Shown: one piece after another, positions 989 through 42,453 of the stretch
Numbering within the stretch: position 1 is the first letter of the stretch
How the letters are laid out: the number at the start of each line of letters is the position of its first letter
DNA from: Candidatus Coproplasma avistercoris
GTDB taxonomy: Bacteria > Bacillota > Clostridia > Christensenellales > Borkfalkiaceae
Assembly: GCA_018711385.1 (NCBI GenBank)
Contig: DVIK01000028.1
Location: 1 to 42,453, forward strand
Direction: 5' to 3'
DNA: 42,453 nucleotides
Translations under genes and position numbers: made by a program
Notes under the pieces: model-generated
Told to the model about the DNA's origin: nothing
What the model saw: only the letters and a program-made list of their open reading frames with translations
Databases searched by the model: none

Positions 989-1004
989 ATCAGCGCAAAA
1001 CAAG

Positions 1005-1120
1005 ATATGCCGCAGACAGCAGGTGCGCTTGCGCTCAATATCCTGCCGAGGTGTTAAGGAATAAAGATCATAAAGCTGTTCTTACGTTGTCCTTATGCCG
1101 CGCGGCATAAGGGCTTTTTA
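1005..1120 (+). ncRNA. ribosomal protein L10 leader with terminal attenuator hairpin
   Basis: Between the promoter and rplJ; GACAGCAGGTGCGCTTGCGCTCAATATCCTGCCGAGGTG block resembling the Rfam L10_leader; CCTTATGCC-GCGC-GGCATAAGG hairpin followed by CTTTTTAA. Confidence 0.75.
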
Positions 1121-1142
1121 ATTCTTAAAGGAGGTACACGGT

Positions 1143-41165: not shown

Positions 41166-41194
41166 TTGACAAAGTGACATTCGTTTGGTAAAAT
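41166..41194 (+). promoter_or_regulatory. promoter for rpsL
   Basis: TTGACA-17-TAAAAT. Confidence 0.75.
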
Positions 41195-41338: not shown

Positions 41339-41713
41339 ATGCCCACAATCAACCAGCTTATAAAGCACGGCAGGGAAAAGCAGGTCTACAAATCCAAGTC
41401 GCCCATACTCGACAACTGCCCCCAGAAGCGCGGCGTGTGCCTTTCGGTCACCACCACGACTCCCAAAAAGCCCAACTCTGCTATAAGAAAGATTGCCCGT
41501 GTGCGCCTTACCAACAAGCAGGAAGGTACCGTATATATTCCCGGCGAAGGCCATAACCTTCAGGAACACTCTTCGGTGCTCATCCGCGGCGGCAGGGTAA
41601 GGGACCTTCCCGGCGTCCGTTACCATATCATCCGCGGCGCCCTCGATACGGCAGGCGTGGCAAAGCGCAAGCAGGCGCGTTCGCGCTACGGCGCCAAGAA
41701 GCCCAAGGCGTAA
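41339..41713 (+). CDS. rpsL: 30S ribosomal protein S12
   Basis: [51 protein letters not shown]...[13 protein letters not shown]. Confidence 0.97.
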
Positions 41714-41730: not shown

Positions 41731-42002
41731 CCTACTTGTTTCGGAATATATCTTCCCTTAACCGATAAAAGTAGGCAGTATTCGCCGAGTGCCTTGAATT
41801 CAAGGCAGACGGGCGGAGAAGGTTTGCTACCAGGATATAATGCCGAAACGCGGCAGCACGAATTTAGTTCGGGCGTCAGGCCGCGTTACGACAAAATAAA
41901 TTTCACGGCAAAAGATTTGCCGAAGGCAAAGATTTTGCGTGAGGTTTTTATTGTGGCAAGCAATAGCTTATTTGGGCCGCGGAATATAAACTCCGCGACC
42001 AC
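41731..42002 (+). ncRNA. candidate structured RNA in the rpsL-rpsG intercistronic region
   Basis: At least five consecutive strong stems (see finding), ending about 30 nt before the rpsG start codon. Confidence 0.5.
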
Positions 42003-42034
42003 CCTTAAAGAAATAAATAAAAGGAGACAAGAAT

Positions 42035-42453
42035 ATGCCCAGAAGAGGTAACGTTCCCAAGAGGGACGTGCTGCCCGATCCCGTGTATAATTCCAAGGTC
42101 GTGACTAAGCTTATCAATCAGATAATGTACGACGGGAACAAGGGTACGGCACAGAACATTGTTTACGACGCGTTCAAAATAATGTCCGAAAAGCTCGGGC
42201 AGGACGCAATGGATATCTTCAATCAGGCAATGAACAACATCATGCCCGTATTGGAAGTAAAGGCAAGGCGCGTAGGCGGCGCCAACTACCAGGTGCCCAT
42301 GGAGATCAGGCCCGAGAGGAGGCAGACCCTTGCCATCCGCTGGCTTGTCATCAACACCAGGAAGCGCTCCGAAAGGGGCATGAGCGCAAAGCTCGCCGCG
42401 GAACTCATGGACGCTTTCAACAACACCGGCGGCACCGTTAAGAAGAAGGAAGA
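42035..42453 (+). CDS. rpsG: 30S ribosomal protein S7 (3' end beyond window)
   Basis: [47 protein letters not shown]...[36 protein letters not shown]. Confidence 0.96.

What the first reader, a model, noticed from the sequence alone, without database searches (positions are those of the whole stretch)
41731..42002. Unassigned ~270-300 nt structured RNA between rpsL and rpsG
Seen directly: rpsL and rpsG are separated by about 320 nt packed with nested pairings. CCTACTT (41731-41737)/AAGTAGG (41769-41775). TTCGCC...TGCCTTG-AATT-CAAGGCA...GGCGGA (41781-41817). AACGCGGC (41847-41854)/GCCGCGTT (41880-41887), enclosing CGAA/TTCG. Two sequential look-alike hairpins, CGGCAAA-AGA-TTTGCCG (41906-41922) and GCAAA-GAT-TTTGC (41926-41938), bracketed by TCAC/GTGA. 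Then a three-way arrangement GTGG[AAGC-AATA-GCTT][CGCGGA-ATATAAAC-TCCGCG]CCAC (41953-42002). Established: in E. coli S7 represses the str operon through the rpsL-rpsG intercistronic RNA, but that element is shorter and I see no obvious match here. Inference: an autoregulatory S7-binding RNA, an independent ncRNA or riboswitch-like element controlling rpsG, or a structured small mobile element.
Basis: partly seen in the sequence, partly recalled or inferred. Interest (0 to 1): 0.75.

Follow-up and report, generated by a model that had tools for sequence, protein, structure and literature searches.

The report
New S7-type ribosomal leader RNA candidate
Between the genes for ribosomal proteins S12 and S7, a large family of gut Clostridia carries a conserved folded RNA that imitates the spot on 16S rRNA where S7 binds, so it probably lets S7 switch off its own production; in this genome the RNA also carries an inserted repeat that made it look twice as long.

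Summary
The pairings are really there, but the 270-300 nt object is composite. A conserved cis-RNA core (P1-AGUA-P2-GAAG-P3, window 41731-41969 plus a 3' hairpin) occupies the rpsL-rpsG spacer. Its P3 loop is filled here by about 120 nt, of which 41840-41943 is a dispersed repeat with an 86% copy elsewhere in the genome. The core occurs in 132 of 151 searched genomes of the family (17 of 18 genera), one per genome in all but one. Every fetched locus lies next to rpsL and/or rpsG; in a separate GTDB scan 80 of 80 loci did. Covariation is strong (A1: 11 of 26 pairs change on both sides, 0/500 shuffles). No Rfam 15 family matches. The invariant AGUA-[hairpin]-GAA reproduces 16S rRNA A1346GUA1349-[h43]-G1373AA, part of the S7 site (site assignment from general knowledge). 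The same signature lies in the known E. coli S7 target spacer and in two other families. Other Clostridia show AGUACC paired with GAAG directly after the rpsG Shine-Dalgarno sequence (18/20 versus 2/61). Best reading: an unreported, lineage-specific S7 ribosomal-protein leader. RNA certain, S7 likely, switching mechanism inferred.

The parts
41166..41194 (+). probable str-operon promoter, TTGACA-17-TAAAAT with TG before the second hexamer, upstream of rpsL
   Evidence: 11 of 12 consensus positions; consensus match only
41339..41713 (+). rpsL (S12)
   Evidence: ORF; 76-100% identity across relatives
41731..41775 (+). P1 hairpin: CCTACTT 41731-41737 / AAGTAGG 41769-41775, inner CGG 41742-41744 / CCG 41762-41764
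   Evidence: 98-99% of cells paired, changes on both sides
41777..41780 (+). AGUA, invariant; equivalent of 16S A1346-A1349
   Evidence: 107 loci; E. coli 16S position
41781..41817 (+). P2 hairpin (TTCGC..GCGGA base, variable apical part), equivalent of 16S h43
   Evidence: four basal pairs formed in 99/99 distinct sequences, two-sided changes in all; the calling script required 3 flush pairs
41818..41821 (+). GAAG, invariant; GAA corresponds to 16S G1373-A1375
41824..41831 (+). P3 5' strand UUGCU-A-CC
   Evidence: covarying with 41955-41963
41832..41954 (+). variable apical region of P3, here holding inserted repeat sequence
   Evidence: length 0 to 375 nt in relatives
41840..41943 (+). dispersed repeat (AACGCGGC hairpin plus TCACGG..CGTGA hairpins)
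   Evidence: 86% copy at G000:C4:88-193(-), second partial copy at C4:1-29
41955..41963 (+). P3 3' strand GG-CA-AGCAA
41967..41969 (+). CTT pairing with AAG 41819-41821 at the base of P3 in this genus
   Evidence: invariant in the genus, partly lost in other genera: weak support
41974..42004 (+). 3' hairpin region, GGG..CCC enclosing CGCGGA/TCCGCG; position conserved, sequence lineage-variable
   Evidence: 40-nt tails fold better than 93% of shuffles on average
42022..42026 (+). Shine-Dalgarno sequence of rpsG (AGGAG)
   Evidence: sequence
42035..42453 (+). rpsG (S7), cut by the contig end
   Evidence: ORF; 71-100% identity across relatives

Best explanation
The rpsL-rpsG spacer holds a cis-acting ribosomal-protein leader RNA of the str operon, with S7 as the most likely ligand. 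Shown: a conserved, covarying three-helix RNA (P1, P2, P3) with invariant joints AGUA and GAAG, family-wide and at one gene location, followed by a hairpin and the rpsG Shine-Dalgarno sequence. Supported: AGUA-P2-GAAG imitates the h29/h43 junction of 16S rRNA where S7 binds. Inferred: when S7 exceeds free 16S rRNA it binds this junction and represses rpsG translation, with fusA downstream, as S7 does at the same place in E. coli. Also inferred is how binding reaches the ribosome-binding site. A possible route is that S7 takes AGUA out of pairing with the UACU/UAUU just after P3 and so rearranges the 3' hairpin before the Shine-Dalgarno sequence. In this window the P3 loop additionally carries an inserted dispersed repeat, probably neutral.
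For: Family distribution: 132/151 genomes, 17/18 genera, one hit per genome except one. Synteny: 73/73 loci beside rpsL and/or rpsG (72 with both) and 80/80 in an independent pattern scan of GTDB genomes (76 with both flanks, 4 truncated); fusA follows rpsG. Covariation: MAFFT alignment A1, 96.3% of cells paired, 11 of 26 pairs changed on both sides, 0/500 shuffles, slid controls 41-55% paired; A4 18 of 26 pairs; anchored count of 99 distinct sequences. 16S resemblance: AGUA-7 bp h43-GAA at E. coli 1346-1375 and in the family's own 16S. A chance AGTA + at least 5 flush bp + GAA is expected 0.037 times per 16S-length sequence. Same signature in rpsL-rpsG spacers of two other families, f19 and f9, and in the E. 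coli spacer, AGUA[AGG..CCU]GAAU, where S7 is the known repressor (PMC10931766). In other Clostridia AGUACC in the spacer goes with AGGGAAG at the rpsG Shine-Dalgarno sequence, 18/20 versus 2/61, and 0/20 at rpsL. No terminator-like site in the core; the two found at 41916-41930 lie in the inserted repeat.
Against: No binding or expression data. The bare AGUA-hairpin-GAA descriptor is short: with 4 or more pairs it also occurs at E. coli 16S 432 and 23S 371, and the E. coli spacer match has only 3 flush pairs. In some relatives repeats lie between the RNA and the Shine-Dalgarno sequence (e.g. L034), which fits poorly with direct occlusion. The P1-loop to 3'-tail pseudoknot I suspected was not convincingly supported. 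The UACU/UAUU complement is missing in about a fifth of sequences.
Confidence: 0.82

Rival explanations
1. A leader RNA of the str operon whose ligand is not S7 (S12, EF-G, another r-protein or a small molecule).
For: Only synteny and a partial rRNA resemblance point to S7; ligand assignment of r-leaders by position is known to be uncertain (PMC7247131).
Against: The element is immediately upstream of rpsG, not rpsL. S7 is the known regulator at this position in E. coli. AGUA..GAA falls on the S7 site of 16S.
Confidence: 0.12
2. A structure for mRNA processing or differential stability of rpsL versus rpsG-fusA, with no ligand.
For: It lies between two cistrons, tolerates insertions on either side, and has no terminator in its core.
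Against: Invariant unpaired-type joints AGUA and GAAG and a deeply conserved core suggest specific recognition; processing hairpins need no such conservation.
Confidence: 0.05
3. The whole spacer is a structured mobile or dispersed repeat.
For: 41840-41943 is a dispersed repeat; repeats recur in the P3 loop and flanks of relatives.
Against: The core occurs once per genome and always at rpsG; it is present without the repeat in most relatives.
Confidence: 0.01

Closest known systems
E. coli str-operon S7 target (rpsL-rpsG intercistronic RNA)
   Same: Same gene position; AGUA-helix-GAA signature; S7 is the repressor there (PMC10931766).
   Different: 96 nt, one AGUA[AGG..CCU]GAAU helix by my reading; no P1/P3 architecture and no detectable sequence homology.
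16S rRNA h29/h43 junction (S7 site)
   Same: Helix - AGUA - hairpin - GAA order; P2 in this genus keeps a U.G second pair like h43.
   Different: 16S continues into h28; the leader has the unrelated P3 instead; GAAG versus GAAU.
rpsL-leader of Naville and Gautheret 2010 and the Pelagibacter rpsL motif of Meyer 2009
   Same: Leaders of the same operon (PMC2965389, PMC2704228).
   Different: Those lie upstream of rpsL (or of fusA), in other lineages, with terminator-based or other structures.
Rfam ribosomal-protein leaders (e.g. L10_leader RF00557, present at 992-1129 of this window)
   Same: Same kind of element: an r-protein mRNA leader.
   Different: No Rfam 15 family matches the spacer or its insert-free relatives.

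Membership tests
Ribosomal-protein leader (r-leader) | Conserved RNA secondary structure supported by covariation | tested here: met
Ribosomal-protein leader (r-leader) | Consistent location in the mRNA of an r-protein gene | tested here: met
Ribosomal-protein leader (r-leader) | Encoded protein binds the RNA and lowers its own expression | not testable with these tools
   needs binding and reporter assays
S7-regulated str intercistronic element | Lies between rpsL and rpsG | tested here: met
S7-regulated str intercistronic element | Resembles the S7 binding site of 16S rRNA | tested here: met
   AGUA-hairpin-GAA; a short motif, so supportive rather than proof
S7-regulated str intercistronic element | Repression through rpsL-rpsG translational coupling | not testable with these tools
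   spacers of 147-835 nt make E. coli-style re-initiation coupling doubtful
E. coli S7 element as a homologous RNA family | Alignable structure beyond the core signature | tested here: not met
   by inspection, the 96-nt E. coli spacer has no P1/P3 counterpart
Known Rfam family | Score above a gathering threshold | tested here: not met
Intrinsic-terminator attenuator | G+C-rich hairpin followed by a T run in the core | tested here: not met
   only terminator-like hits in the spacer are inside the inserted repeat, 41916-41930

The most novel reading that the evidence does not exclude
S7 autoregulation in Clostridia uses one portable recognition signature, AGUA-helix-GAAG (a copy of the 16S h43 junction), in at least two structurally unrelated leaders. 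One is the P1-P2-P3 leader of this family, with the Shine-Dalgarno sequence outside the site. The other, in many other Clostridia families, has the Shine-Dalgarno sequence AGGAGG itself as the 3' strand of the h43-like helix (AGUACC..AGGAGG-GAAG), so that S7 binding would directly hide the start site. Neither is in Rfam.
Probability: 0.55. Interest if true: 0.65.

Novelty: new variant of a known kind. Interest (0 to 1): 0.55.

Why it matters
S7 control of the str operon is a textbook case from E. coli, yet I found no S7 leader described for Clostridia in the papers and the Rfam release available. A family-wide, covarying candidate with rRNA mimicry gives a precise testable target (AGUA, GAAG). 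It adds a case where the same r-protein is read by unrelated RNA architectures sharing only the rRNA-like core. It also shows how dispersed repeats can settle in a tolerant loop of a regulatory RNA and disguise it.

Tried and rejected
Treating the whole spacer as a repeat: rejected for the core. Rfam at gathering and permissive thresholds on the window and on six relatives: no credible match. Pseudoknot between the P1 loop and the 3' G-run, and a switch with the downstream CCC: matched duplexes only marginally better than permuted ones, not significant within the genus. Attenuation by an intrinsic terminator: none in the core. Phylum-wide search of 399 genomes: no hit beyond the window (strict filters, weak homologues could be lost).

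Full report
WHAT IS THERE. The window is contig C80 of an incomplete 1.38-Mb genome in 84 contigs. rpsL ends at 41713 and rpsG starts at 42035, so the spacer is 321 nt. There is no Rfam 15 match in the spacer.

ONE THIRD OF IT IS A REPEAT. Searching the genome with the spacer found a second place: 41840-41943 matches contig C4:88-193 (minus strand) at 86%, with another partial copy at C4:1-29, at the contig end. This covers the AACGCGGC hairpin and the two look-alike hairpins.

THE REST IS A CONSERVED RNA. rpsL hits in 36 same-genus genomes gave their rpsL-rpsG spacers. All the spacers I read carry the same core, most of them without the repeat: P1 (CCUACUU..AAGUAGG), GCAGUA, P2 hairpin, GAAG, P3 (UUGCU-A-CC..GG-CA-AGCAA), then a 3' hairpin and the Shine-Dalgarno sequence. 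Insertions of up to 375 nt sit in the P3 loop of about a third of the genus, as in the window.

COVARIATION. On a sequence-only MAFFT alignment of 20 genus members (A1), 96.3% of pair cells are standard pairs and 11 of 26 pairs show changes on both sides. No shuffle of 500 reached this, and slid partners fall to 41-55%. On 82 family members aligned to the model, 18 of 26 pairs show two-sided changes (that alignment leans towards the structure). With anchors on the conserved joints, 99 distinct sequences form the first four P2 pairs in 99/99 cases, against at most 65 and 57 in shuffles for the two most variable pairs. P3 covaries C-G with U-A in 42 sequences. Caveat: the script that placed the anchors required three flush P2 pairs and chose the best-pairing P3 strand, so pairs 4-6 of P2 and the MAFFT count are the cleaner evidence.

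DISTRIBUTION AND SYNTENY. A covariance model (R1) scores the window at 95.3 bits. It finds the RNA in 132 of 151 genomes of the family, in 17 of 18 genera, one per genome in all but one case. Of 73 fetched loci, 72 lie between rpsL and rpsG and one was cut before rpsG. An independent exact-pattern scan of GTDB genomes returned loci of which 80 of 80 lie at this place: 76 with both genes, 4 on truncated contigs. All carry Clostridia, Clostridiales, Firmicutes or uncultured labels, apart from one labelled Christensenella sp. and one Candidatus Gallimonas. From memory, Gallimonas belongs to GTDB Borkfalkiaceae, order Christensenellales; I did not test that. fusA follows rpsG on the same strand in 50 of 62 long loci. 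In the order, a second model found 34 family members and four weak hits in another family, f19. Across 399 genomes of the phylum nothing but the window was found. Most other families of the order have short spacers.

16S MIMICRY. The joints are nearly invariant: AGUA directly before P2 and GAAG directly after it. In 16S rRNA the h29 strand is followed by A1346-G-U-A1349, then hairpin h43, then G1373-A-A (positions read from E. coli rrsA). The 16S of a family member, G245, reads AGUA-[AUCCCAA..UUGGGGU]-GAAUGCGUUC; the leader of the same genome (L127) reads AGUA-[UUCC GAAA GGAA]-GAAGGUUC. That this junction is part of the S7 site is established knowledge that I recalled, not tested. A chance AGTA plus at least 5 flush pairs plus GAA is expected 0.037 times in a sequence of 16S length and composition. 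The descriptor is short, though: with 4 or more pairs E. coli 16S has another hit at 432 and 23S one at 371. I therefore count it as support, not proof.

SAME SIGNATURE ELSEWHERE. The E. coli rpsL-rpsG spacer, the known target of S7 (PMC10931766), reads AGUA[AGG..CCU]GAAU. Spacers of families f19 and f9 keep AGUA-[hairpin]-GAAG although the periphery differs. In a class- and phylum-wide sample 20 spacers contain AGUACC. In 18 of these the rpsG Shine-Dalgarno sequence continues as AGGAGG-GAAG, against 2 of 61 other spacers, and 0 of 20 at rpsL of the same genomes. An alignment of 16 shows AGUACC and AGGAGGGAAG invariant. That is a different architecture with the same ends, and the Shine-Dalgarno sequence would be the 3' strand of the h43-like helix. 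The flush pairs there are only 2-4, so this second element is a lead, not a result. It has no Rfam match either.

HOW IT MAY WORK. Shown: structure, conservation, location, resemblance to 16S. Inferred: S7 in excess over 16S rRNA binds AGUA-P2-GAAG and lowers rpsG, and probably fusA, translation. The element has no terminator in its core, only terminator-like matches inside the inserted repeat, and a good promoter lies upstream of rpsL. That points to control of translation or mRNA decay. The step from binding to the start site is open. AGUA has a complement (UACU/UAUU and G-U variants) within 10 nt after P3 in 79 of 98 sequences against 26 in shuffles, which could be a competing S7-free pairing. 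A pseudoknot with the P1 loop was not convincingly supported. Repeats between the RNA and the Shine-Dalgarno sequence in some species (e.g. L034) argue against simple steric occlusion there.

NOVELTY. Eckert and Weinberg's 20 new r-leaders include none for S7 (PMC7247131). The 2010 rpsL-leader and the 2009 Pelagibacter motif lie upstream of rpsL or fusA (PMC2965389, PMC2704228). A 2024 survey of 50 genomes does not mention rpsG or rpsL in its main text (PMC11109978). Phrase searches for an S7 or rpsG leader gave only the E. coli review and unrelated papers. The library holds open-licence papers only, so an earlier description in a subscription journal cannot be excluded. I file it as a new variant of a known kind: the kind (S7 control of str) is known, the RNA architecture and lineage are new.

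Noticed in passing
L288, L290, L292, L294, L296, L297, L299-L312 (rpsL-rpsG spacers of other Clostridia families; alignment A5): A different conserved element: an upstream hairpin, invariant AGUACC, a variable AU-rich stretch, then AGGAGG-GAAG at the rpsG start; the Shine-Dalgarno sequence may be part of an AGUA-[helix]-GAAG S7-like site. 18/20 versus 2/61 association, no Rfam match.
   Followed up: partly
L276-L279, L049 (family f19) and L053 (family f9): Diverged rpsL-rpsG spacer RNAs that keep AGUA-[hairpin]-GAAG but have a different periphery (UCUCC..GUCGAGUUGGCUGUAU in f19).
   Followed up: partly
window 41840-41943; L004 1-193; L006, L008, L013 spacers: Dispersed palindromic repeats (TTCACGnAAAAAGATTTTTGC..-type and TGCCGAA-hairpin-TTACGAC-type) recur in intergenic DNA of this genus; at C4 they are tandem and lie at the contig end.
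   Followed up: partly
L034 and L023 spacers: Repeat insertions expand the rpsL-rpsG spacer to 771-835 nt (in L034 as a tandem array of about 100-nt units downstream of the RNA) while the core RNA stays intact.
   Followed up: no
window 992-1129: L10_leader (RF00557), a known ribosomal leader, 78.8 bits.
   Followed up: no
L115 and L116 (genome G335): Two rpsL-rpsG loci with the RNA in one genome bin, possibly contamination (2% listed) or a duplicated operon.
   Followed up: no
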